Shown here: one piece after another, positions 1 through 63,419 of the stretch
Layout: every line of letters begins with the position of its first letter
Numbering within the stretch: the stretch's first letter is position 1
Source: Rufibacter roseus
GTDB lineage: Bacteria; Bacteroidota; Bacteroidia; Cytophagales; Hymenobacteraceae
Direction: 5' to 3'
Assembly: GCF_001647285.1 (NCBI RefSeq)
Contig: NZ_LRML01000014.1
Location: 1 to 64,000, forward strand
Length of the DNA: 64,000 nt
Program-made: the position numbers and the translations under genes
Notes under the pieces: model-generated
The model's input: only the letters and a program-made list of their open reading frames with translations
Database searches by the model: none
What the model was told of the DNA's origin: nothing

Positions 1-34
1 TTTTTAGCCTGTTTTCAGAAAACAGGCTAAAAAC
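1..34. repeat. Palindrome family element 1
   Basis: Perfect inverted repeat with 15-bp arms (1-15 and 19-33) around a 3-nt loop. It lies just past the 3' end of the minus-strand BrkB gene. The left edge may be cut by the window. It belongs to the dispersed family whose arm consensus is CTGTTTTAGGCCTGTTTT. Confidence 0.85.
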
Positions 35-61
35 GGGGCTCATTGCTTTAGGCAGCATAGG

Positions 62-970
62 CTAATCCTCTTTTTCAACTTCATGGGTTTCTACTTTCAC
101 AGCATGTTCAACAGGTTTAATGCCTTGGTCGTGCGCTCTGGAATACACTTGGGTAAATTCGGCGCCCAAAAGAAAAATAATGGAAGTATAATACACCCAC
201 ACCAGAATAAGAATCATGGAACTGGCGGCACCATAGCTGCTGGCAAGCGGATCGTACTGCAGGTAAATGTTCAACACGTATTTTCCTATCACAAACAAAA
301 TAGCTGTCACGGTGGCACCCACCCAGACGTTGGGCCACCTTATTTTAGCATCGGGCAGTACCTTGAAAATTGCAGCAAAAATGGCGATGCTGATCAGAAC
401 AGACACCAGAAAATTTCCAGCGGTGATCAAATAAACAGCCACCCCACTAAACTGACTCCTCAGATATTCATTAAGCACCCCCAATATCACCTCTATAGAC
501 AGTGATACCATCAGCAGGAAACCCAAGCTCACCACCATGGCCAGCGAAAGCACCCGGCTCAGAATCATGTTCAACCATGCTTTCTGGGGCTTCGCCTTCA
601 CCTCCCACATGGCATTGAGGGCATCTTGCAACGCCACAAAAACCGTGGTTGCAGTAAATATCATGGTAGATACTCCTATGATGGTACCTATAGTACTTGA
701 CGAAGATTGGCTGGCGTTCTCAATAATGCTCTGAATCTGCAGAGCGCTGTCTTGACCCACTACTCCCCCAATTTGCTTAACCACCTCACCCCGCACCGCA
801 TCTTGCCCAAAAGCAGACCCGGCAATTCTTATTAAGATGATAAGGAGGGCGGGCAGCGAAAAAATGGTGTAAAACCCAATGATAGCCGCATAGTCCAGGG
901 GCTTGTCATCGGCAAATTCTTTGAAAGTTTTTTTGGTGAGTGACCAGGTAGAGGTTAAAAACTCAGTCAT
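62..970 (-). CDS. YihY/BrkB family inner-membrane protein
   Basis: A 302-residue polytopic membrane protein of the YihY/virulence factor BrkB family, once misnamed ribonuclease BN. The hydrophobic segments and the conserved C-terminal block (about residues 246-276, YGAAS...VWVYY...LLGAEFTQVY) are typical, and the length is normal for the family. The C-terminal tail is charged and probably cytoplasmic. The molecular function of the family is not settled; transport or envelope roles have been suggested. It lies 54 bp downstream of a small lipoprotein gene on the same strand, so the two are probably cotranscribed. A perfect palindromic repeat follows its stop codon. Confidence 0.9.
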   Translation of the reverse strand: MTEFLTSTWSLTKKTFKEFADDKPLDYAAIIGFYTIFSLPALLIILIRIAGSAFGQDAVRGEVVKQIGGVVGQDSALQIQSIIENASQSSSSTIGTIIGVSTMIFTATTVFVALQDALNAMWEVKAKPQKAWLNMILSRVLSLAMVVSLGFLLMVSLSIEVILGVLNEYLRSQFSGVAVYLITAGNFLVSVLISIAIFAAIFKVLPDAKIRWPNVWVGATVTAILFVIGKYVLNIYLQYDPLASSYGAASSMILILVWVYYTSIIFLLGAEFTQVYSRAHDQGIKPVEHAVKVETHEVEKED

Positions 971-1024
971 ACTGTAAAGGAAGATCAGACAGAAAAGACT
1001 CTACAAAAGAATTAGCTTCCAGAA

Positions 1025-1303
1025 TTATTGGTTGCTTCTGCGTTTTACCTCAGACTCCAACACCTTTAGTTCAGCTTCTGCCGCTTTCAACCTATTCTTT
1101 GCAGCTTTCTCACGCAGTTCTGCCTCTTTCGTGTTACTTTCTGCGTTTCTCACCTCTGCTCTCAGATTTTCTACGTGCTCACGCTGTGTTTTCACGGCCG
1201 GATCATTTGACACACTGCTGTTAAAAGCAGAGCAACTCACCATCAGCGGAAATCCTAGCATCAGTACACATGTCAATAATTTAATCTGTTTCAATGAATT
1301 CAT
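1025..1303 (-). CDS. Small coiled-coil lipoprotein
   Basis: A 92-residue protein with a hydrophobic signal segment and a lipobox ending at Cys24 (LMVSC), so probably a lipoprotein. Residues 38-90 are rich in Ala, Glu, Lys and Arg with heptad-like spacing, suggesting one long amphipathic helix or coiled coil, loosely like Lpp or SlyB-type envelope spacers. No specific family is recognised. It is the first gene of a probable two-gene unit with the BrkB-like protein. An antisense open frame of similar size (1032-1319) looks like a shadow, because the lipoprotein reading has a coherent signal peptide. Confidence 0.75.
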   Translation of the reverse strand: MNSLKQIKLLTCVLMLGFPLMVSCSAFNSSVSNDPAVKTQREHVENLRAEVRNAESNTKEAELREKAAKNRLKAAEAELKVLESEVKRRSNQ

Positions 1304-1783
1304 ATTTCAGGAAGAATAGTAAGAGCTTGTTTTTACGGGTAGCCGGAAGCATGGTTATTTGCGGTGATTCCACCACAGAAAATCTAATTATTTCCGGCAG
1401 GTCATTTTAAGCCTCATTTCAGGAAAACAGGCCCAAAAGAGAAAAGCGTGGGAAACGCAAAGTATTGCGCCTCCTCAAAATTCATTCTGTTCGTTTAATA
1501 GACTTAGCAGCGTTGCACGATTTGGCAGTGTCGGTGGAACCCTTAAGCCAACTGTTACAGATGCTTGCATAATGAACTAATTGGGAGTGTAACGGTTCGG
1601 CAGGTCCGTAGAGCGCTGGCGCAAAGGACAAGCACAACAGTAAAATTTCCCTATACAGCACCCCAGCTCCAAATGCTACCAAACAACTGATAGACAGAAC
1701 AAAAAATTACATCTACTTCTCTGACAATATATAGGGAATTTGTATGTTTAAGAGAATATATACCACCTCTCTCTTCACCTCAC
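1304..1783. other. Intergenic region before the macroglobulin gene
   Basis: 480 bp between divergent genes. It holds one palindrome family member (1404-1438) and presumably promoters for both sides. An open frame at 1482-1682 has no signal sequence, family motif or ribosome-site support, so it is not called a gene. No convincing TAnnTTTG promoter element was found. Confidence 0.5.
1404..1438. repeat. Palindrome family element 2
   Basis: Imperfect copy: left arm ATTTTAAGCCTCATTT, right arm GGAAAACAGGCCCAAAA. The arms pair with several mismatches. Confidence 0.6.
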
Positions 1784-4700
1784 ATGAAGCTTTTCTATAC
1801 TTCTTCTCCGCTCCGTGCTATTTGGCAGGGCCTGGGGCTTATTTGCCTTTTGCTTACGTTCAGTTGCCGGGGCAAAAGCGATGAACTGCGGCTAGAGCAG
1901 AAGAATTTTGAAGCGGAAATAGCGCAGGAGCAGAACCTGGTGTTCACTTTTGACAAAAAGCTGGTACCTGACTCTCTCCTGAACAGGTGGGACACGGTGC
2001 CGTACCTCACCTTCAGCCCCAAAGTAGAGGGGAAATTCAAATGGGCTTCACCTGATGAGTTGGTGTTTTCTCCGTCTAAGCCCTTCGCCCCCTCTACTGA
2101 CTATAAAGCCAGCTTAACCGAGAACCTGTTAAAGCATTCAGAAGCAAAACTGAAGATTCCGGCGGGGCAGGATGTAAGTTTTCATACGGCCTACCTGGCG
2201 CTAGAGAAAGCCAAAGCGTTTTGGGTGCGCAACGAGAATAATCCTACTCAACTAGAGGCCAGCCTGCTTCTTGACTTTAACTACCCTGTGGCCTACGCCA
2301 AACTGCGCGAACTGCTCAGTGTGATCCAAAACAATACTCAGCTGCCGCTGGAGCTGGTGAGCAGCAACCGCGACCAACTCACCGTTAAAGTCAAGAATGT
2401 CAATCAGACTTCTGAGGCTGCGCTTCCGGTACAGTTGCGCATAAATCCGGGCCTATCTACTACCGGCAGCACTTACGCCACCAAACTACCCACTGAGCAG
2501 GAAGTGGTGCTGCCCAGTCGCAGACAGATGCAGGTAACCGAAGTGCTGCCGGCGCTGGAAGAAGGGCAGCAAAGCATTTATGTGTTCACCTCTCAGCCGA
2601 TTACCAACGCCGATTTACAGAGCATTGTAACGTTGAATCCGCGGCGGGAATTTACGGTAGAGCGGCTGGAAAACGGCATGGTGCTACGAGGCGAGTTTGG
2701 AAGCAGTCAGAATTACACGTTGTTGGTGGCGGGTGAAATGGCAGGCGTGGTAGGCAAATCACTGGGGCAAACGTACCAGCATCCGGTCTCGTTTCAGAAC
2801 AACCAGCCCAATCTGTCTTTTGTGAATCAGAAAAGTATTTACCTCAGCAGCCAGGGTGCCCGCAACATAGCCCTGAACATAGCCCAGGTGCCGCGCATAA
2901 AAGTGAGCATTGGCAAAGTGTATGAAAATAACATTTTGCGCTACCTGCAAGACGGTAAAATGTACGACGGCTATTATGACGAGGAAAACGAGGAATATTA
3001 TTCTTTCTCCTCTTATGAAGTAGACGAATCTAATGGTCGAACCATCTTCGAGCGCGAGTATGAAACCAGTAGCCTATCTAAACAAGGTCAGAGCCACCTG
3101 CTCCACCTCGATCTGGCCGACCTTGATTTTGACAGCCAGTTCAAAGGCCTGTACGTGCTCAACGTCACCAGCACCGACAAGAACTGGATGAAGGACTCTA
3201 AAATTATTTCCGTGTCAGACATTGGGCTTATTTCAAAACAGGGACAAAACGAAGTACTGGTGTTTGCCAACTCCATTCTTAACGCCAAAGCCCTAGAGGG
3301 CGTCGAAATAAGGTTTATCAGCACCAACAACCAGATAGTGCACAAGGCTACTACCAACTCAGATGGCGTAGCCCGCTTTTCTGACATAGACAAAACCGCC
3401 CCTGATTTTAAAGTAGGCATGATCACCGCCCGCAAAGACCAGGACTTCAACTACCTGCCCTACAGGCAAACTCAGGTAAACACCTCCCGTTTTGATGTGG
3501 GCGGCAAACGTACCACGGCCACACCCTATGACGCTTTTATCTACGGCGACCGTGACCTGTACCGGCCCGGCGACACAGTACACGTGAACACCGTTGTGCG
3601 CACCCAAGACTGGAAAACTGTGGCCGGGCTGCCAATCAAAGTGAAACTGTTGTTACCTAACGGCAAAGAGTACCGCAGCCAGAAAGGCACGCTCAACAAA
3701 GAAGGCGCCCACAGTGCTACCTTCTATCTTCCCACTTCCGCCGTTACCGGCACCTATACGCTGGAAGTATACTCTGGCAATGACCTACTGCTGAACTCAC
3801 AGAAAATTGGTGTGGAAGAATTCATGCCTGACCGCCTGAAAGTAACGGCCGTGCTGAACAAAATTGAGTTTAGAGCTGGAGAGCAACTACAGGTGAACAT
3901 CAACGCTATGAATTTGTTTGGGCCACCCGCCTCTGGCAGGTCGTATGAGGTACAGCTGAGCCTGAAAAAGAAACCATTTGAACCAAAGGGCTTCGATGAC
4001 TACAACTTCGACATCAAGACCTCTGGCGATGTGAGCATACAGAGCAACGTGCGGCAGGGCCAGACCGATGAGAAAGGAAATGCGCAGGAGCAATTCACCC
4101 TCAGCGACCATCAGGATGTAGGCCAGTTGGAAGGCACACTTTTCACCACTGTATTTGATGAAACCGGCCGACCCGTCAACCGGTTAAACCGCTTCACTGT
4201 CAATACTCAGAACGACTATTACGGCATTAGAAAATTTGACACTTACGTGAGTACCCGCCAACCTTTGCAGGTGCCGCTCATCGCCCTCACCCAAGACGGG
4301 AAGCCTACCCCTTCTACCGTGCGGGTGCAGTTGGTGCGGTACACCTATGAGTCGGTGATTGAGCGGTATTCAGAGAATTACGGGTATAATTCCCAGCGCA
4401 GAGAGAACATACTCATGAATGAGATTTTCGCCATTCCTGTAGGCGGAAAAGCCATTCAGTTTACGCCTATGGCCTCGGGAGAATACGAGCTGCGCGTGAT
4501 GCGGCCGGGCGCCTACAATTACGTATCTCAACGGTTCTACGCCTACGGCTGGGGAGACACGGAGAGCACTTCCTTTGAAGTGAGCAATGAAGGCGAAGTA
4601 GAAATTTCCATGGACCAGGAAAGCTATGAAGTGGGCGACAAAGCCAAGCTCTTGTTCAAAGCACCGTTTGCGGGTAAAGTTCTGGTGACCGTAGAGCAGA

Positions 4701-7222
4701 ACAAAGTCATGAGCTACCATTACCTGGAAACCGATAAAAAAGCCGCCTCGCTTTCGCTGCCAATAAAAGACGAGCACCTGCCCACGGTTTATGTTTCGGC
4801 TATAGCTATTCGGGAAATGAAAGACAACCAGCTGCCGCTCACCATTGCCCGTGGCTTCAAACCCATCAACGTCACCAAAAAATCAACTAAACTAGAGGTA
4901 GCCGTTATTGCCCCTGACCAAACCCGCTCTAAACGGGTGCAGCAGGTGAAGGTGAAAACCGAGCCCAACACTGAAATAACACTGGCGGTGGTAGATGAAG
5001 GCATTCTGCAAATGAAAGATTACCAAACCCCAGACCCGCACAGTTTCTTTTACCAGAAACGTGCCCTTGAAACCAGCACGTATGACTTATATCCCTTCCT
5101 GTTTCCTGAAATCAGTGGTCGCAGAAGCAGCGTGGGCGGCGACGGGTATGACCTGGAGAAAAGAATCAATCCGCTTACCTCTAAACGGGTAAAACTGGTG
5201 TCTATCTGGAGTGGTCACCTTAAAACCAACGGTAGCGGCGAAGCTACGGTGAACGTTAAAGTACCTGAGTTCTCCGGAGCCTTGCGGGTGATGGCGGTGG
5301 CTTACAAAGGCAACGCTTTCGGCTCCGCCGATAAAATTATGCGGGTGGCAGACCCAATTGTCATCAGTACCGCACTACCGCGTTTTGCCAGCCCTAAAGA
5401 CACACTGTTGGTGCCGGTAACGGTGAGCAATACCACCTCCAAAAGAGCACCTGCCAGTAGCACCATTTCTGTTTCAGGACCTTTGAGGATAGTAGGTTCC
5501 AGCACTAAAACCACCACCATTAACGGCAACACTGAGAGCCAAATAACATACCAGATTGTGGCTTCTCCGGCCATTGGTCAGGCCAAAGTGGTGGTGGCTG
5601 TAAAAGCCATGGGCGAGCAGTTCAGCAACAGCACCGACATTTCAGTTCGTCCGGCCGCCCCTTTAACTAAAATAACGGAGGCGGGCTCAATGAAAAATGC
5701 CACTACTCTGGCCATCAACCCGAAACATGACTTTATACCCTCTTCGGTTGCTTCTAAGCTGGTGGTGAGCAGTTCACCTTTGGCGCAGTTCACCGACGAC
5801 ATTACATACCTGCTCCAATACCCCCACGGCTGCCTGGAGCAAACCACCTCCACCGCTTTTCCGCTGCTATACTATACTGATTTAGCCCGTACCCTGAATC
5901 AAGGAAGTAAAGCCCGCACCTTCAACCCTAATTTCCTGGTTCAGGAGGCAATCACTAAAATTGAGTTGATGCAGCAGTATGACGGCGGCTTTACCTACTG
6001 GCCCGGCGGTTCCCATACAGATTGGTGGAGCAGTGCCTATGCCACGCATTTCTTGTTGGAAGCTAATAAAGCTGGCTTTCCGGTTAGCTCAGAAGTGTTG
6101 GGCAGAGCTATGGAATACCTGCAGCGGATGGTGAAAACCAAAGCCACCGAAGAGTACAAGTACTACAACGCCAGCCGTAAACTGCAGAGCAAGCTCATTG
6201 CCGCACGTGAGACCATTTACTCGCTCTACGTGCTGGGGCTGGCCAACAAGCCCGATTGGCCTACCATGAACTTCTACAAAGCCAAGCCGGAGCAACTCTC
6301 CACCGACTCAAAGTACCTGCTGGCCAGCACCTATTCCCTGAACGGCAGTTACCAGAGCTTCAGTCAGGTCTTGCCCCGCTCTTTTGCCGGAGAAACTTCT
6401 GTCAGAGCCATGGATGGCAGCTTCTACTCGCCTGTGCGTGATATGGCCATTGCTTTGAATAGTTTGGTAGAGGCTAACCCAGAGCACCCGCAGGTGGGCA
6501 CACTTTCAAGGCACCTATCGCAGGAACTGCGCAGCAAAAACTGGTACAACACCCAAGAGCGGGCTTTCGCCTTATTGGCCCTAGGCAAACTGGCTAGCCG
6601 CAGCAAAGGCAACCAAACCGTGCAGGCAGTGCAAAATGGTAAAGTGGTGGGGAAATATAACGGCAAAGACCTTACCCTGACAGACCAACTGAACAAAGGA
6701 GCAGTCAATCTAAAAAGTGCCGGCAACGGGACCCTTTACTACTTCTGGGAATTGGAAGGCATCAGCCAGAGCGGCGCCTATAAACAGGAAGACAGTCATC
6801 TGCAGGTGCGCAAAACTTTCTATGATCGCAACGGAGCGGTCATCACCAACCATACCTTTAAGCAAAACGACCTGGTGATTGTGCGGGTAGAGCTGCAGTC
6901 TTTGGATAACAGAACCGTGCCTAACGTAGCCATCACTGATTTACTACCCGCTGGATTTGAGATTGAGAACCCGCGCCTGATGACGTCGCGTGAATTCCAG
7001 TGGCTCCAGAACATGTCTCCTGCCGAGCCAGATCACATAGACATCCGCGACGACCGCATCAATCTATACACTACTGCCAAACCTAAACCACAGTACTTCT
7101 TTTATCAGGTTCGTGCCGTGAGCCCCGGTGTCTTTCAAATGGGGCCAATTGGCGCTGATGCCATGTACAATGCAGAATACCATTCTTACTACGGCGCAGG
7201 AACGGTCAGGGTAAATAGATGA
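1784..7222 (+). CDS. Alpha-2-macroglobulin family lipoprotein
   Basis: A 1812-residue bacterial alpha-2-macroglobulin. The N-terminus is a signal peptide with lipobox Cys28 (TFSC), so the protein is a lipoprotein, expected in the periplasm. The A2M domain begins near residue 1135 (VKLVSIWSG). The thioester motif GCLEQ is intact at residues 1349-1353 and is followed by an alpha-helical toroid-like region. In the family the thioester traps attacking proteases covalently. The next plus-strand gene is penicillin-binding protein 1C, the same pairing seen for yfhM and pbpC in Escherichia coli, where the trap is thought to protect a periplasm exposed by wall damage. The length is typical. The two genes are 984 bp apart, with a minus-strand gene between them, so they are not a tight operon. 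Confidence 0.93.
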   Translation: MKLFYTSSPLRAIWQGLGLICLLLTFSCRGKSDELRLEQKNFEAEIAQEQNLVFTFDKKLVPDSLLNRWDTVPYLTFSPKVEGKFKWASPDELVFSPSKPFAPSTDYKASLTENLLKHSEAKLKIPAGQDVSFHTAYLALEKAKAFWVRNENNPTQLEASLLLDFNYPVAYAKLRELLSVIQNNTQLPLELVSSNRDQLTVKVKNVNQTSEAALPVQLRINPGLSTTGSTYATKLPTEQEVVLPSRRQMQVTEVLPALEEGQQSIYVFTSQPITNADLQSIVTLNPRREFTVERLENGMVLRGEFGSSQNYTLLVAGEMAGVVGKSLGQTYQHPVSFQNNQPNLSFVNQKSIYLSSQGARNIALNIAQVPRIKVSIGKVYENNILRYLQDGKMYDGYYDEENEEYYSFSSYEVDESNGRTIFEREYETSSLSKQGQSHLLHLDLADLDFDSQFKGLYVLNVTSTDKNWMKDSKIISVSDIGLISKQGQNEVLVFANSILNAKALEGVEIRFISTNNQIVHKATTNSDGVARFSDIDKTAPDFKVGMITARKDQDFNYLPYRQTQVNTSRFDVGGKRTTATPYDAFIYGDRDLYRPGDTVHVNTVVRTQDWKTVAGLPIKVKLLLPNGKEYRSQKGTLNKEGAHSATFYLPTSAVTGTYTLEVYSGNDLLLNSQKIGVEEFMPDRLKVTAVLNKIEFRAGEQLQVNINAMNLFGPPASGRSYEVQLSLKKKPFEPKGFDDYNFDIKTSGDVSIQSNVRQGQTDEKGNAQEQFTLSDHQDVGQLEGTLFTTVFDETGRPVNRLNRFTVNTQNDYYGIRKFDTYVSTRQPLQVPLIALTQDGKPTPSTVRVQLVRYTYESVIERYSENYGYNSQRRENILMNEIFAIPVGGKAIQFTPMASGEYELRVMRPGAYNYVSQRFYAYGWGDTESTSFEVSNEGEVEISMDQESYEVGDKAKLLFKAPFAGKVLVTVEQNKVMSYHYLETDKKAASLSLPIKDEHLPTVYVSAIAIREMKDNQLPLTIARGFKPINVTKKSTKLEVAVIAPDQTRSKRVQQVKVKTEPNTEITLAVVDEGILQMKDYQTPDPHSFFYQKRALETSTYDLYPFLFPEISGRRSSVGGDGYDLEKRINPLTSKRVKLVSIWSGHLKTNGSGEATVNVKVPEFSGALRVMAVAYKGNAFGSADKIMRVADPIVISTALPRFASPKDTLLVPVTVSNTTSKRAPASSTISVSGPLRIVGSSTKTTTINGNTESQITYQIVASPAIGQAKVVVAVKAMGEQFSNSTDISVRPAAPLTKITEAGSMKNATTLAINPKHDFIPSSVASKLVVSSSPLAQFTDDITYLLQYPHGCLEQTTSTAFPLLYYTDLARTLNQGSKARTFNPNFLVQEAITKIELMQQYDGGFTYWPGGSHTDWWSSAYATHFLLEANKAGFPVSSEVLGRAMEYLQRMVKTKATEEYKYYNASRKLQSKLIAARETIYSLYVLGLANKPDWPTMNFYKAKPEQLSTDSKYLLASTYSLNGSYQSFSQVLPRSFAGETSVRAMDGSFYSPVRDMAIALNSLVEANPEHPQVGTLSRHLSQELRSKNWYNTQERAFALLALGKLASRSKGNQTVQAVQNGKVVGKYNGKDLTLTDQLNKGAVNLKSAGNGTLYYFWELEGISQSGAYKQEDSHLQVRKTFYDRNGAVITNHTFKQNDLVIVRVELQSLDNRTVPNVAITDLLPAGFEIENPRLMTSREFQWLQNMSPAEPDHIDIRDDRINLYTTAKPKPQYFFYQVRAVSPGVFQMGPIGADAMYNAEYHSYYGAGTVRVNR

Positions 7223-7257
7223 AAGTTATTTGAGCAAGAAGACAAGGTAGGAATTTC

Positions 7258-7293
7258 GTTTTCGGGCTGTTTTCTCAATAGCAGCCCGAAAAC
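7258..7293. repeat. Palindrome family element 3
   Basis: Perfect 12-bp arms (GTTTTCGGGCTG and its complement) 36 bp past the macroglobulin stop. It could also act as a transcript-end hairpin, but no U-tract follows on the plus strand. Confidence 0.8.
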
Positions 7294-7378
7294 AAATGAA
7301 GATGATTGATGGCAGGTGCGGCAGAAACTCTGCTTTCTCCTTCTATCAAAAAGATGTTTAGTCTTGGGAAATATATGA

Positions 7379-7415
7379 GTTTCAGGCTTCTTTTCAGGAA
7401 ACCACGCCTAAAACA
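7379..7415. repeat. Palindrome family element 4
   Basis: Imperfect copy: left arm TTTCAGGCTTCTTTTC, right arm GGAAACCACGCCTAAAACAG. It lies just past the 3' end of the minus-strand 137-residue gene. Confidence 0.7.
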
Positions 7416-7450
7416 GCAATATCTTGAAGCTTGAAATGGTTAGGCTTTTT

Positions 7451-14971: not shown

Positions 14972-15011
14972 CTGTTTTCAGGCTGTTTTTAAGAAAACAC
15001 CTCCAAAACAG
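14972..15011. repeat. Palindrome family element 7
   Basis: Left arm CTGTTTTCAGGCTGTTTTT, right arm GAAAACACCTCCAAAACAG; the outer CTGTTTT/AAAACAG ends are intact. Confidence 0.75.
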
Positions 15012-30810: not shown

Positions 30811-31614
30811 TCATTTTTTCGCCGCTAACGTTTTCATGCCTTCAAAAACCAAGCGGGCAACTTCTTTTGCTCCCTCTGGCTGAAAGTGCGTGTTGTCTTT
30901 CTGCCCCTCTGGGTAGTTCTTATACTTACCGGCGGGCAGGTTCATAAAGTAATTGGCAGTCACGTACTCCTGTCCTTTCTCTGAGAAAGAGTCAATAGAC
31001 AGTTGCTGCAAGTCTATCAGTTGCACGTTCAATTCACGGGCAACATCTTTCACCGCCTGCGGATACTCGCCATGAACATTGCCAATTCTGCCGTCTTTCC
31101 AGGGGTAGTTACGGGCCACCGGCGTCAGCAGCACTGGAATAGCCCTTTTCTGTCGGGTTTGGTTCACGAACAGGCGCAGGTATTCTTTGTAGCCCTGTAT
31201 GTTGACGTAGCGCTCAGGCTTGTTCTCGGCGGCATCGTTATGACCAAACTGAATCATGACCACATCGTTTTTCTTTAAAGCGTTGTACACCTGCGCCCAA
31301 CGGCCTTCCTCAAAAAAGGTGCGGGTACTGCGGCCGCCACGGGCTTTGTCTAGCACCACGGCGCTGTCTCCTTTAATCAGGTGCTTTAGTTTGGGCAAAT
31401 TGTCTGACCGCAGGAACGGCTGAAACACCTGCCCCCACCCCATCACCGGATACCGCTTGTTCATGTAATCCTCGCCGTCATAGTCAGAATAATCGGCTAC
31501 GGTGGAGTCACCTACCAAATACACGTGCACTATCTTCTTTTTAAATGAAATGAAAGACAATGCGGAAAGGCTACTCACTAAAAGTGCAATGGCAATGATT
31601 CTTCTGGTAAGCAT
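30811..31614 (-). CDS. Rhamnogalacturonan acetylesterase-like SGNH hydrolase (CE12)
   Basis: A 267-residue exported SGNH esterase, paralogous to the CE12 gene at 21825-22586. Signal segment about 1-24. Block I is GDSTVADYSDYDGE, with the nucleophile Ser; GRSTRTFFEEGRW follows; block III is GHNDAAENKPERY; and the block V Asp-His pair is in DNTHFQPEGAKE. It should remove acetyl esters from pectin. A strong terminator precedes it (31645-31676), so its expression depends on readthrough from the GH28 gene or on a promoter within the 64-bp gap. The start codon touches a palindrome element. Confidence 0.9.
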   Translation of the reverse strand: MLTRRIIAIALLVSSLSALSFISFKKKIVHVYLVGDSTVADYSDYDGEDYMNKRYPVMGWGQVFQPFLRSDNLPKLKHLIKGDSAVVLDKARGGRSTRTFFEEGRWAQVYNALKKNDVVMIQFGHNDAAENKPERYVNIQGYKEYLRLFVNQTRQKRAIPVLLTPVARNYPWKDGRIGNVHGEYPQAVKDVARELNVQLIDLQQLSIDSFSEKGQEYVTANYFMNLPAGKYKNYPEGQKDNTHFQPEGAKEVARLVFEGMKTLAAKK

Positions 31615-31653
31615 GTTTTAGAGCTGTTTTTGAAAAAAGAGCATAAAAACAGC
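31614..31653. repeat. Palindrome family element 11
   Basis: Left arm TGTTTTAGAGCTGTTTTT, right arm AAAAAAGAGCATAAAAACAG. The right end (31645-31653) is also the left arm of the terminator at 31645-31676, so the two hairpins compete. The element abuts the CE12 start codon. Confidence 0.8.
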
Positions 31654-37030: not shown

Positions 37031-37067
37031 GTGTTTTGGACCTGTTTTCTGAAAAACGGCTCCAAAA
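37031..37067. repeat. Palindrome family element 14
   Basis: Left arm TGTTTTGGACCTGTTTT, right arm GAAAAACGGCTCCAAAAT, in the 168-bp gap between CE8 and PL1. Confidence 0.8.
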
Positions 37068-37155
37068 TGTCCTTTGTAGTTGTCTCTTCTGTGCCTTAAA
37101 AATGATTTTACAAAAGGCCTTCCTTTTATAAAATGATGAAAGTGGCTTACTCCAG

Positions 37156-38148
37156 CTATTTCCCTACCGAGGCAGCCGCTTCGGTAGTAAAGGGAACCCA
37201 ATCCCCGAAAATATTTTTCAAGCTATAAGTCTTCGCTTCTTCGGCGGTCAGTTGCTTTGCCCACTTCACCCGTTTAGCCGGAGCCGCTCCCGGACCGGTG
37301 GAGTTGTACTCTGCATAAAAAGCGGTTTTCTCAGCGTCGGGTTTGTTCCAGTTATGCCAACCTTCGGGTTTGATATGCTGACCCAGATAACTGTTGATGA
37401 AAACGGTTTTAGCATAGGGTCTCCATGGGCGGCCCAAGTAGTAAGAATCAGCTGGGGCATCTCCGGTGAGGCGGCAGTTCAGGAAAACAAAACCGTAAGG
37501 CGCTCCTTCTAAAGTAGACGCTGCCGTTACGTAGCTTCCGCCTTTCTTGGAGAAGATTTCGCAGCCCTCAAAAACAGCGGTTGACCAGCCAAATATAAAA
37601 TCAGTGGTGCCCTCTATGTAGCAGTTCTTGTAATACTGGCGGCTCTTTTCGCCGTGCGGATAAAGTGTATCTTGGTTTCCTAGAAAACGGCAGTTTTTAA
37701 AGGCAACTTTATCGCCATCAATTCTTACGGCTACTGCCTGCCCTACCGGGCCTGCAGAGTTCTCAAACGTGATGTTTTCGGCGGTGAAGTCGTCTCCGAA
37801 AATATAAAAGCTGGTAGAGCCGGTAGTTCCCATTTCCTCTCCAAACCGGTTCTTTTTGGCTGCATAGTCATCATGGGTCAGAATGGTTTTGGCCACGTCT
37901 TCACCAATAAAAGTGACCATGGTTTTTGAGGTAGGCAGCACCAGTTTCTCTTTATACACCCCATTTTTGATGTAAATGGTGGTGGTGTTCTTGCGGAAAT
38001 CCGGCACAGCATTGATAGCTTCCTGCACCGTTTTAAACTGTCCGCTGCCGTCTTGCGCTACCACAAAATCATACTTCTGCGCCTGCACTGGCAACACTAG
38101 TACCCACAAGCACCAAAACAATAGTACACTTTGAATCTTCTTCAACAC
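37156..38148 (-). CDS. Pectinesterase (CE8)
   Basis: A 330-residue exported pectin methylesterase of ordinary size. Signal peptide about 1-23, then the CE8 beta-helix with GVYKEKL, GQAVAVR, LGNQDTLY, EGTTDFIFGWS and YLGRPWRPY, which supply the Gln, two Asp and Arg active-site residues. With no lipobox or sorting domain, it is expected in the periplasm, removing methyl esters from imported oligogalacturonides. It is closely related to the CE8 at 39509-40450. It starts 8 bp after the GH105 stop, so those two are tightly linked. Confidence 0.92.
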   Translation of the reverse strand: MLKKIQSVLLFWCLWVLVLPVQAQKYDFVVAQDGSGQFKTVQEAINAVPDFRKNTTTIYIKNGVYKEKLVLPTSKTMVTFIGEDVAKTILTHDDYAAKKNRFGEEMGTTGSTSFYIFGDDFTAENITFENSAGPVGQAVAVRIDGDKVAFKNCRFLGNQDTLYPHGEKSRQYYKNCYIEGTTDFIFGWSTAVFEGCEIFSKKGGSYVTAASTLEGAPYGFVFLNCRLTGDAPADSYYLGRPWRPYAKTVFINSYLGQHIKPEGWHNWNKPDAEKTAFYAEYNSTGPGAAPAKRVKWAKQLTAEEAKTYSLKNIFGDWVPFTTEAAASVGK

Positions 38149-39404: not shown

Positions 39405-39463
39405 TTGTTTTGTTTGGTTCAGGTAATAGGGGCGGTGCCATGAATGCAGGCACTGGTAGTTTG

Positions 39464-39502
39464 TGTTTTGGGTTTGTTTTAGCAAAAACAGACCCAAAAC
39501 GG
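39464..39502. repeat. Palindrome family element 15
   Basis: Left arm TGTTTTGGGTTTGTTTT, right arm AAAAACAGACCCAAAACGG, between CE8 and GH105 in the same transcription direction. Confidence 0.85.
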
Positions 39503-57077: not shown

Positions 57078-57085
57078 TCTTTCCA

Positions 57086-57122
57086 AAAACAGCGGCAATT
57101 TTTATAATGGTCGCTGTTTTTG
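57086..57122 (+). terminator. Terminator-like hairpin after uxaB
   Basis: Arms AAAAACAGCG (57086-57095) and CGCTGTTTTT (57113-57122), loop of 17 nt. It is within the operon and its 3' arm is also the 5' arm of the palindrome at 57114-57153. Confidence 0.65.
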
Positions 57123-57153
57123 ACTTATTTTCACGAAATCATGCTTAAAACAC
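57114..57153. repeat. Palindrome family element 17
   Basis: Left arm GCTGTTTTTGACTTATTTT, right arm GAAATCATGCTTAAAACA. It shares its left end with the upstream terminator-like hairpin. Confidence 0.75.
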
Positions 57154-57206
57154 AAAAGCTGTAAAAGCCTTTGTTGTTTCATTTCCCAATAAACGACTCA
57201 AAGTAC

Positions 57207-58604: not shown

Positions 58605-58613
58605 GCTAGGGGC

Positions 58614-59633
58614 ATGGGCAAAGTTTTATCCTTTGGAGAGTTATTATTGAGAATTTGCCCCGATATGAAAGGGCAATGGCTGGAAGAAAACCGCCTGCCT
58701 TTTTTTGTGGGTGGCGCCGAACTCAATGTGGCCACGGCGTTGGCCTTATGGGACGTGCCTTCTTCTTACATGACCGCGCTGCCTGACAATTTTATGTCTG
58801 AACAGCTGCTGGCATATATGCAAGATCGCCACATAGACACCAGCCGCATTTTACTGCAAGGTGACAGGGTTGGCCTCTATTACCTGCCCAAAGGCAAGGA
58901 CTTGAAGAACGCCGGTGTTATCTATGACCGCGCCGGCTCTTCCTATGCTGGTTTAAAGCCACGTACCATTGACTGGGATACTGTTTTCGAGGATGTATCA
59001 TGGTTCCATTTCAGCGCCATTTGCCCTGCTCTCACCCAACAAGTTGCCGACGTTTGTGCCGAAGCGCTGGAAGTAGCTAAAAGCAAAAACATCTTTGTGT
59101 CTCTGGACCTGAATTACCGAGCCAAGCTCTGGAAATACGGGAAAGATCCGGTAGAAATAATGCCCGCCCTGGCTCAATCATGTGACCTGATCATGGGAAA
59201 TATCTGGGCAGCGCATAATATGTTAGGCATGCCTCTAGAAGAGGAACTGGTGCAGAACACCGAGAAAGAAAAGTTACTGCAGCATGCAAAACTTACTTCT
59301 GAGGCAATTTTAAAAGAGTTTCCGCGCTGCAAAACGGTAGCCAACACCTTTCGGTTCGACCACCAGCAGGGCATCCGCTACTACACCACACTCTACACAC
59401 AAGGCGAATTAATCACGTCGCAGGAGTATGTGGTAGAGAAAATTCTGGACAAAGTAGGCAGCGGCGACTGCTTTATGGCTGGACTTTTATACGGATTTTA
59501 TCACCAGCACTCTCCAGAGAAAACCTTGGAGTTTGCCACTGCGGCAGCCTTTAAAAAATTGTTTATCCCAAGCGACGCCACCACCAGCACGGTAGCCGAG
59601 ATTGAACATACCATCACTGAATATGCCCAATAA
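58614..59633 (+). CDS. kdgK: 2-keto-3-deoxygluconate kinase (PfkB family)
   Basis: A 339-residue ribokinase/PfkB-family kinase that phosphorylates 2-keto-3-deoxygluconate to KDPG. N-terminal FGELLLRICPDMKGQW and the sugar-binding GGAELNVATALA are followed by the C-terminal ATP-site signature DKVGSGDCFMAGLLYG, with the catalytic base Asp285. KDG kinase is chosen over other PfkB sugars because the kdgA aldolase overlaps its 3' end. The stop TAA lies within the first codons of the aldolase gene. Confidence 0.9.
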   Translation: MGKVLSFGELLLRICPDMKGQWLEENRLPFFVGGAELNVATALALWDVPSSYMTALPDNFMSEQLLAYMQDRHIDTSRILLQGDRVGLYYLPKGKDLKNAGVIYDRAGSSYAGLKPRTIDWDTVFEDVSWFHFSAICPALTQQVADVCAEALEVAKSKNIFVSLDLNYRAKLWKYGKDPVEIMPALAQSCDLIMGNIWAAHNMLGMPLEEELVQNTEKEKLLQHAKLTSEAILKEFPRCKTVANTFRFDHQQGIRYYTTLYTQGELITSQEYVVEKILDKVGSGDCFMAGLLYGFYHQHSPEKTLEFATAAAFKKLFIPSDATTSTVAEIEHTITEYAQ

Positions 59634-60282
59634 AGAAACTGCCTTAAAAGCGATCACTGACCAAGGCTTACTCCCCCTTTTCTTTTATGAAGATGCCCAA
59701 GTAAGTCTTGAAATTATAAAAACGCTGTATGATGCCGGAATCAGAACCCTGGAGTACACGAATCGTGGCCCTGCAGCGTTAGAGAATTTCAGGTATCTGA
59801 AGTCTGAATTAGCTTCTTACTCAGATTTGCACCTAGGTATTGGCACCATCAAAACGGTGCAACAGGCTGAGGATTTCTTGAAAGCCGGCGCTGATTACAT
59901 TGTAGCTCCAATTGTTGACCCTGCGGTTGGCAACAGAGTGCATGAAGCGGGCTTGCTTTGGATACCCGGCTGCTTTACCCCTACTGAAATTCATGTGGCT
60001 CAAACCGCACAGGCTGGGCTAATAAAGATTTTCCCAGCCAATATTGTAGGTCCGGCCTTTGTTTCTTCCATAAAAGAACTTTTCCCTGGCCAACTTTTCA
60101 TGCCAACCGGCGGAGTGGAGATGGATGAGCAGAACATTAAAACTTGGTTTAAAGCAGGGGTTTGTGCCGTAGGGATGGGCAGTAAATTGATTAGCAAAGA
60201 AGTATTGGCTAACCGCCAGTACGATCAGTTGCGCACCCAAACCCAAGAAGCCCTGCGCCTGGTGAAGGCAAGCCAATCTTAA
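59623..60282 (+). CDS. kdgA: KDPG aldolase
   Basis: A 219-residue class I aldolase from the ATG at 59623, which overlaps the kdgK stop by 11 bp; the frame from 59602 adds seven residues. It splits 2-keto-3-deoxy-6-phosphogluconate into pyruvate and glyceraldehyde-3-phosphate, ending the pathway. Typical features: the Glu of TLEYTNRGPAALE, GTIKTVQQAEDFLKAGADYIVAP, and the Schiff-base Lys in GLIKIFPAN, with PTGGV near the phosphate site. The family is also called Eda. Confidence 0.93.
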   Translation: MPNKETALKAITDQGLLPLFFYEDAQVSLEIIKTLYDAGIRTLEYTNRGPAALENFRYLKSELASYSDLHLGIGTIKTVQQAEDFLKAGADYIVAPIVDPAVGNRVHEAGLLWIPGCFTPTEIHVAQTAQAGLIKIFPANIVGPAFVSSIKELFPGQLFMPTGGVEMDEQNIKTWFKAGVCAVGMGSKLISKEVLANRQYDQLRTQTQEALRLVKASQS

Positions 60283-60291
60283 CAGAACAAC

Positions 60292-61356
60292 ATGCACCAA
60301 ACGAACAAACAAACAATAACTCAACGCCAACTAAAGCCCACCAAACTTCTGATGGCGTTGTTCATGCTAGGTACTTTCATTTTTGGCTCGTCTTGCAAAA
60401 AAATAAAAGACACCACTGAAATTAAACTGGCGCACGCGTTGGAGGTAACCCATCCTGTGCACTTGGCCATGCTGTTCATGGCTGAAAAGGTAAAGGAGAA
60501 ATCAGGCGGAAAAATGGTGCTGGAGATTTACCCAAATGCCCAGTTAGGTAGTGAACGCGAGTGTCTGGAACTGCTCCAGATTGGCAGCTTAGGCATGACC
60601 AAAGTGTCAGCGGCCGTTTTGGAAAGTTTCTCTCCAAACTACAAGGTACTCAGCCTGCCTTACATATTTAAAACGAAAGAGCATTATTACCGCGTTTTGG
60701 AAAGCAGCATTGGCGACCAATTTTTAGCTGAGGGCGAAAAGTACTGGTTCAAGGGACTTACTTTCTATGACGCCGGAAGCCGCAGCTTTTACTCAACCAG
60801 AAAGCCGATCAACCGTCCGGAAGATTTGAAGGGAATGAACATTCGGGTACAGTTGAGCCCTACGGCCATTGCTATGATCAATGCTTTTGGTGGCGCAGCT
60901 ACTCCAACAGCCTGGGGCGAGCTGTATACTGCCCTGCAGCAAGGCGTGGTAGACGGCGCTGAAAATAACCTGCCCAGCTTTTACCTTTCACGCCACTATG
61001 AGGTAAGTAAATACCTTTCTCTGAACGAGCATACCATGGTACCGGACGTACTGATGGTGAGCACCGTGGTGTGGGACCAACTGAACGATCAAGAGAAGAA
61101 GTGGCTTCAGGAAGCCGCTGACGAATCAGCGGTGGTGCAGCGGCAGCTATGGGCAAAGGCCGAGGCCGAAGCACTGGCAGCCGTGAAGAAAGCAGGTGTA
61201 GAGGTGAGTTACCCCGACAAAGAACCATTTTCTAAGCTAGTGGAGCCGCTTTATGAAACCTACAGAAATGAGCCGGAGGTGTATTCACTCATTAAAAGAA
61301 TAGAAGCTGCCGAAAAAGCGCCCGCTCAATCTGAAGCTACTTCGCATACCTTATAA
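60292..61356 (+). CDS. dctP: TRAP transporter substrate-binding lipoprotein (DctP family)
   Basis: A 354-residue DctP-type binding protein. Instead of a free signal peptide it has a lipobox ending at Cys35 (FGSSC), so it is membrane anchored. The binding fold has VTHPVHLAMLFMAEKVKEKSGGKM, PNAQLGSERECLELLQ and the carboxylate-binding Arg in LKGMNIRVQLSP. TRAP systems import acids with a sodium gradient. The operon context makes a hexuronate such as galacturonate, or unsaturated uronate, the most likely substrate. It is followed 11 bp later by the small permease. Confidence 0.92.
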   Translation: MHQTNKQTITQRQLKPTKLLMALFMLGTFIFGSSCKKIKDTTEIKLAHALEVTHPVHLAMLFMAEKVKEKSGGKMVLEIYPNAQLGSERECLELLQIGSLGMTKVSAAVLESFSPNYKVLSLPYIFKTKEHYYRVLESSIGDQFLAEGEKYWFKGLTFYDAGSRSFYSTRKPINRPEDLKGMNIRVQLSPTAIAMINAFGGAATPTAWGELYTALQQGVVDGAENNLPSFYLSRHYEVSKYLSLNEHTMVPDVLMVSTVVWDQLNDQEKKWLQEAADESAVVQRQLWAKAEAEALAAVKKAGVEVSYPDKEPFSKLVEPLYETYRNEPEVYSLIKRIEAAEKAPAQSEATSHTL

Positions 61357-61367
61357 GCCACAGCCAG

Positions 61368-61859
61368 ATGATTCGCAAAAAAATAGACAGCCTTCTGTTC
61401 GGACTTTTAGTCTTTCTCATGGCCTTCATGGTACTGAATGTACTGTGGCAGGTAGCCTCACGCTATGTACTACGGTCTCCCAGCTCCTTTACCGATGAAC
61501 TGGCCCGCTTCCTCTTAATATGGGTGGGTTTATTGGGTTCTGCTTATGTAACCGGCAAAAAACTACACTTGGCCATCGACATCATTCCTTCCAAAATGAC
61601 CGGAAAAGGCGCCAAAAACCTCAGTATTTTCATCAATATTCTGGTAGCGCTGTTTGCCCTGTTCGTGATGGTGTGGGGAGGGTTGAAACTGGTGTACATT
61701 ACCCTAACCCTCAACCAAACTTCTGCCGCCCTTAACGTGCCATTGGGCTACGTGTACAGTGTTCTGCCATTAAGTGGCTTACTCATTATTTACTACAGCT
61801 TCATGAATTTGACGGAGAAGCGCAATGAGTCAGAAGTCATAGGCAAAGAAATGTTCTAG
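61368..61859 (+). CDS. dctQ: TRAP transporter small permease (DctQ family)
   Basis: A 163-residue protein with four membrane segments (about 9-31, 44-62, 84-105, 125-145), of normal DctQ length. The conserved block RSPSSFTDELARFLLIWVGLLGSAYVTGKKLHLAIDII is present. It forms the membrane complex with DctM. The gap to dctM is 67 bp and contains nothing recognised. Confidence 0.92.
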   Translation: MIRKKIDSLLFGLLVFLMAFMVLNVLWQVASRYVLRSPSSFTDELARFLLIWVGLLGSAYVTGKKLHLAIDIIPSKMTGKGAKNLSIFINILVALFALFVMVWGGLKLVYITLTLNQTSAALNVPLGYVYSVLPLSGLLIIYYSFMNLTEKRNESEVIGKEMF

Positions 61860-61926
61860 GCTCTCAGGCCTATCATAGATAATTAATTCCAAACCACCCG
61901 CTTACCCCGAACTAAAGACAAACTAC

Positions 61927-63225
61927 ATGGAATTTCTTGAAATTATAGTGCTGGTTGTCAGCTTCGTTATTCTGCTGGCTCTTGGCGTACCCATTGCTTT
62001 CTCTATTGGTATTTCCGCTTTGCTAACCATGCTGGTGAGCATTGCCCCTGAACCGGCTTTCACTACCATGGCCCAACGTATGGCCACCGGTCTTGATAGT
62101 TTCGCGTTGCTGGCCATTCCTTTTTTCATTTTGGCGGGTCAACTCATGAACCGAGGAGGCATAGCCAGTAGGCTCATTGACTTTGCGAAAGGTTTGGTTG
62201 GTACGTTACCAGGCGGTTTGGCGTACGTGAACGTGGTAGCCTGTATGCTCTTTGGGGCTATTTCTGGCTCAGCGGTGGCAGCAGCTTCTGCCATTGGCGG
62301 TATCATGAACCCACGAATGGTGAAAGAAGGCTACTCTAAACCATTCAGCGCCGCGGTAAACATCACTTCTGCCACCACGGGTATGATTATACCACCCAGC
62401 AACATCTTAATTGTATATTCATTGGCGAGTGGCGGTGTCTCTATTGCGGCACTTTTCGTGGCTGGTTACATTCCGGGTATTCTGCTGGGCCTTTCCATCA
62501 TGATTGTAGCCGGCTTTATTGCCTGGAAAAACAAATATCCGGTCAGCGACCGCACTCCATTGCGCGTGGTTTTCAAGAAGTTTTTGGATGCTCTTCCCAG
62601 CCTGTTCCTGTTGTTCGTAATCATTGGTGGTATTATAGCGGGTATATTCACTGCCACTGAGGCATCTGCCATTGCCGTGCTGTACACCGTCATCCTGTCA
62701 ATGGTCATTTATAAGGAAGTTAAAGTAGCAGACCTGCCTGACATTCTCATTAGCACAGTTATTACCACAGCCATAGTTATGCTGCTCATTGGTACTTCCA
62801 TGGGTATGTCTTGGGTTATGTCTTACGAGAACATTCCGCAAGGCATGAGTGATGCTCTGCTTTCCATCAGTGACAATAAGATTGTCGTTCTCATCATCAT
62901 CAACCTGATTCTTCTGTTTGTAGGAGTATTCATGGACATGACCCCGGCTGTACTTATCTTCACTCCTATCTTCTTACCAGTAGTGACGGCCTTGGGCGTA
63001 GACCCGGTTCATTTCGGTATCATGATGGTGATGAATCTTTGTATTGGTTTATGTACCCCACCGGTGGGCGGCGTGCTCTTTGTTGGGTGTGGTGTGGCAG
63101 GAGTAAGTATTAGCAAAGTGATCAAACCGCTGGTTCCCATGTTTATTGCTATGGTAGTGGCCCTGCTTTTGGTGACTTACATTCCGGAGCTTAGTACTTG
63201 GCTGCCTCGCCAGTTCGGCTTGTAG
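61927..63225 (+). CDS. dctM: TRAP transporter large permease (DctM family)
   Basis: A 432-residue polytopic permease of the normal DctM length. Typical motifs: LLAIPFFILAGQLMNRGGIASRLIDFAKGLVG, GAISGSAVAAASAIGGIMNPRMVKEGYSK and the C-terminal GLCTPPVGGVLFVGCGVAGVS. It catalyses sodium-coupled transport of the substrate delivered by DctP. It is the last gene of the plus-strand uronate operon and is followed by a palindrome and an intrinsic terminator. Confidence 0.95.
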   Translation: MEFLEIIVLVVSFVILLALGVPIAFSIGISALLTMLVSIAPEPAFTTMAQRMATGLDSFALLAIPFFILAGQLMNRGGIASRLIDFAKGLVGTLPGGLAYVNVVACMLFGAISGSAVAAASAIGGIMNPRMVKEGYSKPFSAAVNITSATTGMIIPPSNILIVYSLASGGVSIAALFVAGYIPGILLGLSIMIVAGFIAWKNKYPVSDRTPLRVVFKKFLDALPSLFLLFVIIGGIIAGIFTATEASAIAVLYTVILSMVIYKEVKVADLPDILISTVITTAIVMLLIGTSMGMSWVMSYENIPQGMSDALLSISDNKIVVLIIINLILLFVGVFMDMTPAVLIFTPIFLPVVTALGVDPVHFGIMMVMNLCIGLCTPPVGGVLFVGCGVAGVSISKVIKPLVPMFIAMVVALLLVTYIPELSTWLPRQFGL

Positions 63226-63242
63226 TTTCTTAACATCAGTAT

Positions 63243-63282
63243 CTGTTTTAGGCCTGTTTTAAGAAAACCAAGTCTAAAACAG
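63243..63282. repeat. Palindrome family element 18
   Basis: Left arm CTGTTTTAGGCCTGTTTT is the family consensus itself; right arm GAAAACCAAGTCTAAAACAG. Confidence 0.85.
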
Positions 63283-63306
63283 GAACACCTTGTATAGTTT
63301 TACAAC

Positions 63307-63340
63307 AAAAAGGCCTTCTGCTTTGGCAGAAGGCCTTTTT
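63307..63340 (+). terminator. Intrinsic terminator of the uronate operon
   Basis: Perfect arms AAAAAGGCCTTCTG (63307-63320) and CAGAAGGCCTTTTT (63327-63340), loop of 6. Confidence 0.9.
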
Positions 63341-63380
63341 GTTAGATTTATTTTATTTGCTCTAATAATGCTCTCTCTTA

Positions 63381-63419
63381 CTGTTTTAGAACTGTTTTTG
63401 AAAAATGAGGCTTAAAACA
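63381..63419. repeat. Palindrome family element 19
   Basis: Left arm CTGTTTTAGAACTGTTTTT, right arm AAAAATGAGGCTTAAAACA, 138 bp after element 18. Confidence 0.75.

What the first reader, a model, noticed from the sequence alone, without database searches (positions are those of the whole stretch)
1..63419. A family of about 20 short palindromes fills most longer intergenic gaps
About 20 imperfect inverted repeats of 34-52 bp share the arm CTGTTTTAGGCCTGTTTT around a T-run/A-run core. The 7-mer CTGTTTT (or AAAACAG) recurs in outer and inner arm positions. All accepted copies are intergenic. In the minus-strand enzyme run they occupy nearly every gap of 64 bp or more, often near a start codon, but are absent from tight junctions. 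Copies differ too much to be recent insertions, yet the palindromic core is kept, which suggests selection at the RNA or DNA level. Possible roles are RNA processing or stability between operon genes, protein binding, or a non-autonomous mobile repeat. I do not recognise the family.
Basis: partly seen in the sequence, partly recalled or inferred. Interest (0 to 1): 0.72.

Follow-up and report, generated by a model that had tools for sequence, protein, structure and literature searches.

The report
Rufibacter gene-end DNA palindromes with dialects
A 40-letter mirror-image DNA word sits in many of the longer gaps between genes in the bacterial genus Rufibacter, mostly stays in the same gaps from species to species, yet is spelled differently in different species, which suggests an unidentified protein that reads it.

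Summary
The repeat is real. The window holds 19 good copies of a 40-bp palindrome, CTGTTTTAGGCCTGTTTT-nnnn-AAAACAGGCCTAAAACAG, plus one weak and one truncated copy. The host is a Rufibacter; 288 copies in 864 kb suggest about 1,700 per genome. All 16 genomes of the genus searched carry it; 43 from other genera are near background. It favours gene ends: 56/69 convergent gaps >=80 bp, 143/291 tandem, 31/85 divergent. Orthologous gaps tend to keep a copy, often at the same offset, while the consensus differs between species at similar density. Mismatches show no RNA-strand bias; in two of five species a dialect marker is distributed independently over the arms. This points to a double-stranded DNA site read half by half rather than an RNA hairpin. 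A minority (130/1,032) have complementary flanks; among those with >=6 bp, a third of transcribed sides end in a T-run, so some are tips of terminators. Best reading: a REP-like palindrome, spread ancestrally, now a largely fixed set of sites for an unidentified factor. Continued copying is the main rival. No RAYT transposase could be tied to it.

The parts
1..36 (.). palindrome copy, cut by the window start
   Evidence: (arm at 19-36, 3 mismatches)
1402..1441 (.). 40-bp palindrome copy
   Evidence: 37 bits
7256..7295 (.). 40-bp palindrome copy in a convergent gap
   Evidence: 41 bits
7377..7416 (.). second palindrome copy in the same convergent gap
   Evidence: 37 bits
8076..8115 (.). 40-bp palindrome copy
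   Evidence: 45 bits
12894..12933 (.). 40-bp palindrome copy, 17 of 18 arm positions paired, 4-bp flank stem
14972..15011 (.). 40-bp palindrome copy
   Evidence: 48 bits
17994..18033 (.). 40-bp palindrome copy
   Evidence: 43 bits
22603..22642 (.). 40-bp palindrome copy
   Evidence: 42 bits
24143..24182 (.). 40-bp palindrome copy
   Evidence: 41 bits
26355..26394 (.). weak palindrome-like copy inside a predicted gene
   Evidence: 26 bits
27202..27241 (.). 40-bp palindrome copy with a 6-bp flank stem (CAGTCC/GGACTG)
31613..31653 (.). palindrome copy (41 bp)
   Evidence: 45 bits
33453..33492 (.). 40-bp palindrome copy
   Evidence: 48 bits
35265..35305 (.). palindrome copy (41 bp, one extra base)
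37031..37070 (.). palindrome copy at the 5' end of a perhaps over-extended TTG ORF
39463..39502 (.). 40-bp palindrome copy
   Evidence: 46 bits
41947..41987 (.). palindrome copy (41 bp)
57114..57153 (.). 40-bp palindrome copy; the R. immobilis (G005) ortholog has a similar left arm but a dialect right arm
63243..63282 (.). 40-bp palindrome copy, best match to the consensus
   Evidence: 49 bits
63381..63420 (.). 40-bp palindrome copy
   Evidence: 47 bits

Best explanation
The palindrome is a double-stranded DNA site, read as two largely independent half-sites by an unidentified symmetric (dimeric or tetrameric) DNA-binding factor, and it marks the ends of transcription units in Rufibacter chromosomes. 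Inferred history: a REP-like palindrome spread by copying in the Rufibacter stem lineage; copies were then mostly retained in the same gaps, with a T/A-tract core constrained and the rest of each half-site drifting to a lineage-specific consensus, either because the factor changes specificity or because copies still convert one another. About one copy in eight has complementary flanks as well, and some of these, with a T-run on the transcribed side, have become the tips of intrinsic terminator hairpins. Shown: abundance, genus restriction (for this spelling), placement, positional conservation, differing consensus between species, lack of RNA-strand bias, independence of the arms at the marker tested in two species, a terminator-like subset. 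Inferred: the factor, its role (nucleoid or boundary organisation, supercoil handling) and the ancestral burst.
For: Arms occur as pairs: 4 of 250 arm hits lie outside called palindromes, two of them at sequence ends, one in a palindrome with a deletion and one beside a poor second arm. At a dialect marker chosen after inspection, arms are independent in G005 (0/1/2 marked arms 11/49/57 against 10.8/49.5/56.8) and G013 (1/14/57 against 0.9/14.2/56.9). No RNA-strand bias in mismatches. T4-T7 and T16-T18 are kept in 91-99% of own arms while neighbouring positions vary; in 45 close ortholog pairs the core is 0.88 identical (0.87 in non-orthologous pairs, as expected of a shared consensus) while flanks are 0.38-0.39. 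Differing consensus at 3.4-6.7 copies per 10 kb in 14 species samples. Same gap and offset across species: 47% of 534 ortholog pairs within 5 nt against 14% for random placement; tandem gaps >=80 bp concordant in 584 of 671 pairs against 521.7+-5.7 in a length-stratified null; convergent 72 of 72, where saturation leaves no separate test. At least two G005 copies with one inherited-looking arm and one dialect arm. Copies per gap level off above about 120 bp in convergent and tandem gaps.
Against: The sites hold more information than needed to be found: about 23 bits per element in the loosest species (G008) to 51 in G012 (twice the half-site values), against about 11.6 bits for 1,700 sites in 5.1 Mb; this suggests copying. 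In G012 exact 40-mers recur up to nine times and arm scores correlate (0.66). In this genome marked arms co-occur more than expected (154/90/44 against 137.5/123/27.5), likewise G012 (33/80/100 against 25/96/92), and near-perfect copies are in excess in own, G005, G012 and G013. Nearest-neighbour distances are shorter than independent columns predict, most in G012 and G005. In the loosest species even T4 and T7 are only 58-64% conserved (G008). In the pooled set 126 of 1,032 copies fall inside predicted genes, mostly low-symmetry calls, so either some calls are false or genes are not strictly avoided. No factor was identified; no binding or phenotype data exist here.
Confidence: 0.45

Rival explanations
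1. A still active non-autonomous mobile repeat (REP/MITE-like) copied by a trans-acting nuclease or transposase, which repeatedly re-targets the same gene-end sites and overwrites old copies, giving species dialects.
For: Presence in one genus only; exact duplicates in G012 (9, 6 and 5 copies of three 40-mers) and an excess of close pairs; orthologous copies no more alike than random ones in the pairs G012/G013, G006/G012 and G006/G013 (permutation P 0.12-0.64), as if overwritten; the most symmetric copies tend to sit inside locus-specific inverted repeats.
Against: Orthologous copies in loose-dialect species share private bases in the right orientation (G003/G004 12.1 against 17.4 differences, none of 500 permutations as low) and offsets are kept. 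A dialect marker is acquired arm by arm in G005 and G013. No target-site duplication signal stands out. Y1 transposases do not track it: G007 has none at E<=0.001 but 837 arm hits. Nested copies were not searched for systematically.
Confidence: 0.3
2. A transcription terminator or mRNA 3'-end/processing element acting as RNA.
For: Preference for gene ends and convergent gaps. Of 1,032 copies 130 have flank stems >=4 bp; of the 53 with >=6 bp, 55% are in convergent gaps and a T-run follows on 34% of 79 transcribed sides against 5% of 21 other sides; for 4-5 bp 32% of 99 against 7% of 43. In the gap at own C1:302549, the four species with both neighbours recognised (own, G006, G013, G015) each have complementary flanks of unrelated sequence, 5-13 bp by my reading. 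Near-perfect copies (>=17 of 18 pairs) exceed random arm re-pairing: 33 against 2.7 in own, 30 against 12 in G005.
Against: No sense-strand G.U excess. In low-symmetry copies (485 of 1,032) T-runs are as rare on the transcribed side (6%) as on the other (7%); in symmetric copies without flank stems (144) 15% against 13%. Ordinary terminators coexist and tend to lie before the element (before 45 against 23 antisense, after 18 against 22, overlapping 31 against 17, in 301 tandem gaps). Pairing above independence is limited to the middle and outer arm in own, to positions 2, 8 and 14 in G012, to position 1 in G005, and is not seen in G013 or G007.
Confidence: 0.17
3. A DNA-uptake or other genome-marking signal spread by biased transformation, like the DUS dialects of Neisseriaceae.
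For: Thousands of copies and species dialects resemble DUS (title and abstract start of PMC3630211 seen).
Against: Solitary arms are nearly absent (4 of 250); in this genome 17 of 288 copies lie in predicted genes. The unit is much longer than a DUS (10-12 bp, recalled).
Confidence: 0.04

Closest known systems
REP / BIME / REPIN repeats with RAYT (TnpA_REP) transposases
   Same: 20-40 bp palindromes, many copies, mostly intergenic, sequence families tied to particular genomes (PMC3733652 passages; PMC6006769 passages and sections 12 and 25)
   Different: No GTAG/CGTC-type tag at one end seen; strand-symmetric; positions kept across a genus; no matching RAYT established
Subclass 2.6 TnpA_Y1 of Bacteroidetes with 'atypical' REP structures (PMC6006769)
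   Same: The genome holds Y1 proteins resembling this type (about 181-185 aa, NHxH, YIHQNP-like), and the paper reports non-GTAG structures near such genes
   Different: In four of the nine Rufibacter loci where my script recognised the gene, it is flanked by a different 22-26 bp palindrome (TTCCGGATT..AATCCGGAA type); G007 has no detected Y1 gene yet carries the 40-bp element
DNA uptake sequences of Neisseriaceae
   Same: Many copies, dialects between related species
   Different: A 40-bp palindrome with almost no solitary half-sites
Intrinsic bidirectional terminators
   Same: A minority of copies form the tip of hairpins, some followed by T-runs, most often in convergent gaps
   Different: Most copies lack flank stems and have imperfect arms; ordinary small-loop terminators coexist

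Membership tests
REP/RAYT | 20-40 bp palindrome in >100 mostly intergenic copies | tested here: met
REP/RAYT | GTAG or CGTC tag at one end of the palindrome | tested here: not met
   No conserved tetranucleotide in the flanks; they are only T-rich next to the arms
REP/RAYT | Y1 (RAYT) gene in the genome | tested here: not met
   G007: 0 matches at E<=0.001 (4 candidates scored) but 837 arm hits; the other 13 Rufibacter genomes listed have 1-6
REP/RAYT | RAYT gene flanked by its own REP copies | tested here: inconclusive
   13 Rufibacter Y1 loci given, gene recognised in 9; a 40-bp copy scoring >=18 within 320 nt in 6 of 9, without a background rate; different short palindromes in 4 of 9
MITE/insertion element | Target-site duplication | tested here: not met
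   Best of 225 direct-repeat comparisons z=3.7 at an off-register position; no block
Intrinsic terminator | Paired stem followed by a T-run on the transcribed strand | tested here: not met
   Met in a subset only: 34% T-run with flank stems >=6 bp, 6% in the low-symmetry class, equal to its control
RNA structural element | Sense-strand G.U tolerance and covariation | tested here: not met
   against this, covariation at positions 8, 9 and 11 in own and an excess of near-perfect copies
Known Rfam family | Match at the gathering score | tested here: not met
   0 matches in the window
DNA uptake sequence | Single, unpaired copies that bias uptake | tested here: not met
   4 of 250 arm hits outside palindromes; uptake itself not testable

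The most novel reading that the evidence does not exclude
Rufibacter uses a genus-specific, chromosome-wide network of about two thousand palindromic sites, roughly one per occupied gene-end gap, read by an undescribed DNA-binding factor whose specificity evolves so that lineages acquire their own site dialects: a bacterial boundary or nucleoid-marking code derived from a domesticated repeat.
Probability: 0.3. Interest if true: 0.88.

Novelty: new variant of a known kind. Interest (0 to 1): 0.62.

Why it matters
Repeated extragenic palindromes are often treated as mobile debris with incidental functions. Here a whole genus keeps copies in the same gaps while the sequence is rewritten in different lineages. 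That gives a natural experiment on whether such repeats are parasites, terminators or a site network with a co-evolving reader: 14 species samples, several distinct spellings, tight and loose lineages, and a gene-end bias.

Tried and rejected
RNA hairpin as the general function: rejected on strand symmetry and weak or absent arm covariation; kept for a terminator-like subset. RAYT/Y1 transposase as driver: not supported, though adjacency was inconclusive. Replacement of ordinary terminators: not seen; they are no rarer in gaps with the element (own convergent 0.64 of 47 with, 0.50 of 14 without). Recent whole-copy transposition as the only explanation: but G012 shows exact duplicates. Flank stems as a mark of the youngest copies: they track arm symmetry better than closeness to other copies in G005, G012 and G013; in own both contribute. 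A palindrome family of other sequence in sister genera was looked for only roughly (long inverted repeats per gap): rarer in Pontibacter tandem gaps (0.10 of 69 against 0.30 of 50 in own; 0.13 of 53 in other Rufibacter), with only 3 convergent gaps to compare. A second gap (C33:54554) was examined like that of C1:302549 but neighbours were often not recognised. A viral-contig scan found one contig with one copy, not followed further.

Limits: genes were predicted by my own script (first run), not by an annotation pipeline. Ortholog pairs share gaps across species and are not independent (162 distinct tandem and 18 distinct convergent gaps >=80 bp); only species pairs with at least 8 usable copies were tested by permutation there, none of them including this genome, whose orthologous copies are few (pooled 14.7 against 16.3 differences, n 56 pairs). 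Species matrices used thresholds of 10-18 bits, with 0-3 hits per set in reversed controls at 13-14 bits. Absence in other genera means absence of this spelling. T-rich flanks in G012 and G005 inflate short flank stems there.
Full report
WHAT IS THERE. The window carries 19 good copies of a 40-bp palindrome (half-site CTGTTTTaGGCCTGTTTTTc in this genome), one weak copy in a predicted gene and one copy cut by the window start. The arm pattern gives 19 hits against 0.14 expected. In the whole genome (5.12 Mb) the arm has 732+754 hits with <=3 mismatches against 3+3 for the reversed pattern. In 864 kb that I read (the window plus two 400-kb runs) a symmetric matrix finds 288 copies at >=18 bits and none in reversed sequence, which scales to about 1,700 copies per genome. 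Rfam has no match in the window.

WHO HAS IT. All 16 genomes of the genus in the collection carry 162-2,883 arm hits; the 43 other genomes of the family and order searched carry at most 33 (that genome's reversed control: 20). Named loci identify the genus: 8 of 8 Rufibacter loci of about 21 kb have 2-10 copies at >=18 bits with this genome's matrix; none of the 72 other loci returned (Pontibacter and other genera, some MAGs) has one.

WHERE IT SITS. With my own gene finder, 56 of 69 convergent gaps of 80 bp or more hold a copy, 143 of 291 tandem gaps and 31 of 85 divergent gaps, but only 2 of 22 divergent gaps of 80-199 bp and 1 of 86 tandem gaps under 40 bp; 17 of 288 copies fall inside predicted genes. 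In the pooled set of 15 species samples 126 of 1,032 do, mostly low-symmetry calls. Copies per gap level off above about 120 bp in convergent and tandem gaps. In tandem gaps the median distance is 44 nt from the preceding stop and 105 nt to the next start (n 163). Ordinary intrinsic terminators coexist; in tandem gaps they tend to lie between the stop and the element (45 before against 23 antisense controls), and they are no rarer where the element is present.

IT MOSTLY STAYS IN PLACE. Between species at about 72-82% nucleotide identity, orthologous gaps agree in occupancy: tandem gaps >=80 bp, 584 of 671 pairs concordant against 521.7+-5.7 when occupancy is shuffled within species and length class; convergent gaps >=80 bp, 72 of 72 (89 of 92 at >=40 bp), where saturation leaves no separate test; divergent 48 of 73 against 39.6+-3.0. 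Offsets agree within 5 nt in 47% of 534 pairs against 14% for random placement. In loose-dialect species orthologous copies share private bases in the correct orientation: R. latericius / R. hautae (10 copies) differ by 12.1 of 40 positions against 17.4 for non-orthologous copies and 16.9 if flipped. Across 45 close pairs the T/A core is 0.88 identical (0.87 non-orthologous), variable arm positions 0.54 (0.41) and flanks 0.38-0.39 (0.26-0.27).

BUT IT IS RESPELLED. Density is 3.4-6.7 per 10 kb in 14 species samples while the consensus differs, though some species resemble one another: CTGTTTTaGGCC.. here, CCGTTTTCGGGCTCATTT in G012, GCGTTTAGGGGCTgTTTT in R. immobilis, CCGTTTTTGGCCTGTTTT in G013, and ccGTTTTgGGGCTGTTTT-like forms in several; G007 resembles G013. 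None of the tested species pairs that include G012, G006 or G013 shows orthologous copies significantly more alike than random ones: there the sites look rewritten where they stand. At least two R. immobilis copies have one arm resembling the orthologs of other species and one dialect arm. At a marker chosen after inspection, the two arms carry the dialect independently in R. immobilis (11/49/57 against 10.8/49.5/56.8) and G013 (1/14/57 against 0.9/14.2/56.9); in G012, G007 and this genome one-arm copies are fewer than expected (80 against 96; 9 against 12.4; 90 against 123). Arm scores are uncorrelated in G005, G013 and G007 and correlated (0.66) in G012, which also has exact duplicates (one 40-mer nine times), so whole-copy spread or homogenisation happens there.

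DNA RATHER THAN RNA. In tandem-gap copies oriented by transcription, mismatches of the G.U kind and the A.C kind are equal: 205 and 201 in this genome, 296 and 298 in 13 other samples; columns are symmetric in this genome and nearly so in the others (two of 20 columns at p 0.03-0.04). Pairing above independence in this genome is confined to the outer and middle arm and the first three flank positions, strongest at position 8, and absent in the inner arm. It is seen at positions 2, 8 and 14 in G012, at position 1 in G005 and not in G013 or G007. In the window alone it is within reach of the shuffles. Against this, near-perfect copies (>=17 of 18 pairs) exceed random re-pairing of arms in own (33 against 2.7), G005 (30 against 12), G012 (60 against 34.8) and G013 (10 against 4.3).

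A TERMINATOR-LIKE SUBSET. Copies with well paired arms are the ones that tend to have complementary flanks. Of 1,032 copies, 130 have perfectly complementary flanks of 4 bp or more, up to 17 bp, mostly of different sequence from locus to locus. Of the 53 with 6 bp or more, 55% lie in convergent gaps, and T-runs follow on 34% of 79 transcribed sides against 5% of 21 other sides. Examples are AAAAAGCCTTGCCT[element]AGGCAAGGCTTTTT in R. immobilis and AAAAGGATCGCCC[element]GGGCGATCCTTTTTT in G006. In the gap at own C1:302549 the four species with both neighbours recognised (own, G006, G013, G015) each have a perfect stem of unrelated sequence around the element; 4 of the 15 loci looked at show no element in the stretch read, all without the second neighbour.

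RELATION TO KNOWN REPEATS. By size, number and placement it resembles REPs (PMC3733652, passages read; PMC6006769, passages and sections 12 and 25 read). It is not filed as one: there is no GTAG/CGTC tag, and no RAYT is tied to it. G007 has no Y1 transposase match at E<=0.001 and 837 arm hits. The genome holds Y1 proteins resembling the Bacteroidetes subclass 2.6 of PMC6006769, but in four of nine recognised Rufibacter loci these genes are flanked by a different short palindrome; a 40-bp copy lies within 320 nt of six of the nine, for which I have no background rate. DUS dialects (PMC3630211, listing and abstract start only) are the closest precedent for dialects. In the listed parts of searches for Rufibacter with palindromic, REP with Bacteroidetes/RAYT, palindromic repeats with concerted evolution, insertion sequences with terminator hairpins, intergenic repeats with Hymenobacter/Cytophagales, and REP with convergent genes, no paper describes this family by title or abstract start; the two papers were not opened.

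MECHANISM. I favour a dsDNA half-site pair read by an unidentified symmetric factor, with an ancestral REP-like spread and later retention. The main difficulty is that the sites hold about 23-51 bits, depending on species (twice the half-site values), where about 11.6 would do, and that G012 shows copying. A still active copying process is therefore the main rival.

Noticed in passing
L012, L189, L196, L203 (flanks of Y1 transposase genes): A second, shorter palindrome family (CTTTCGGATTGCAAATCCGAAAG, CTTCCGGATTTATCAATCCGGAAG, GTTCGGGATTGGTAAATCCCGAAC) flanks subclass-2.6-like Y1 genes; it may be their cognate REP.
   Followed up: partly
L013 (upstream flank of its Y1 gene) and L287: A longer inverted repeat containing CAAGTTACGC...GCTAAACTTGCGG in own resembles intergenic DNA in G006; perhaps another dispersed repeat.
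   Followed up: no
L251, L253, L255, L280: Gaps in several Rufibacter carry other repeat-like sequences, such as GTCATCTTGGAAAGATCTTGTGGG..CCTTTCAGGATGACAAA and GTGCGGACACGAGC..GCTCGCGCCAGCGG (not both in each); in L251, L253 and L255 the palindrome is absent from the stretch shown, in L280 it is present.
   Followed up: no
L304:1273-1312: One IMG/VR contig (39 kb) carries a copy close to the genus consensus in the 4 kb held; perhaps a Rufibacter prophage.
   Followed up: no
window 37156-38148: The protein used for the genome scan is closest to a Pontibacter homolog (86%) although the host is a Rufibacter; horizontal transfer or sampling.
   Followed up: no
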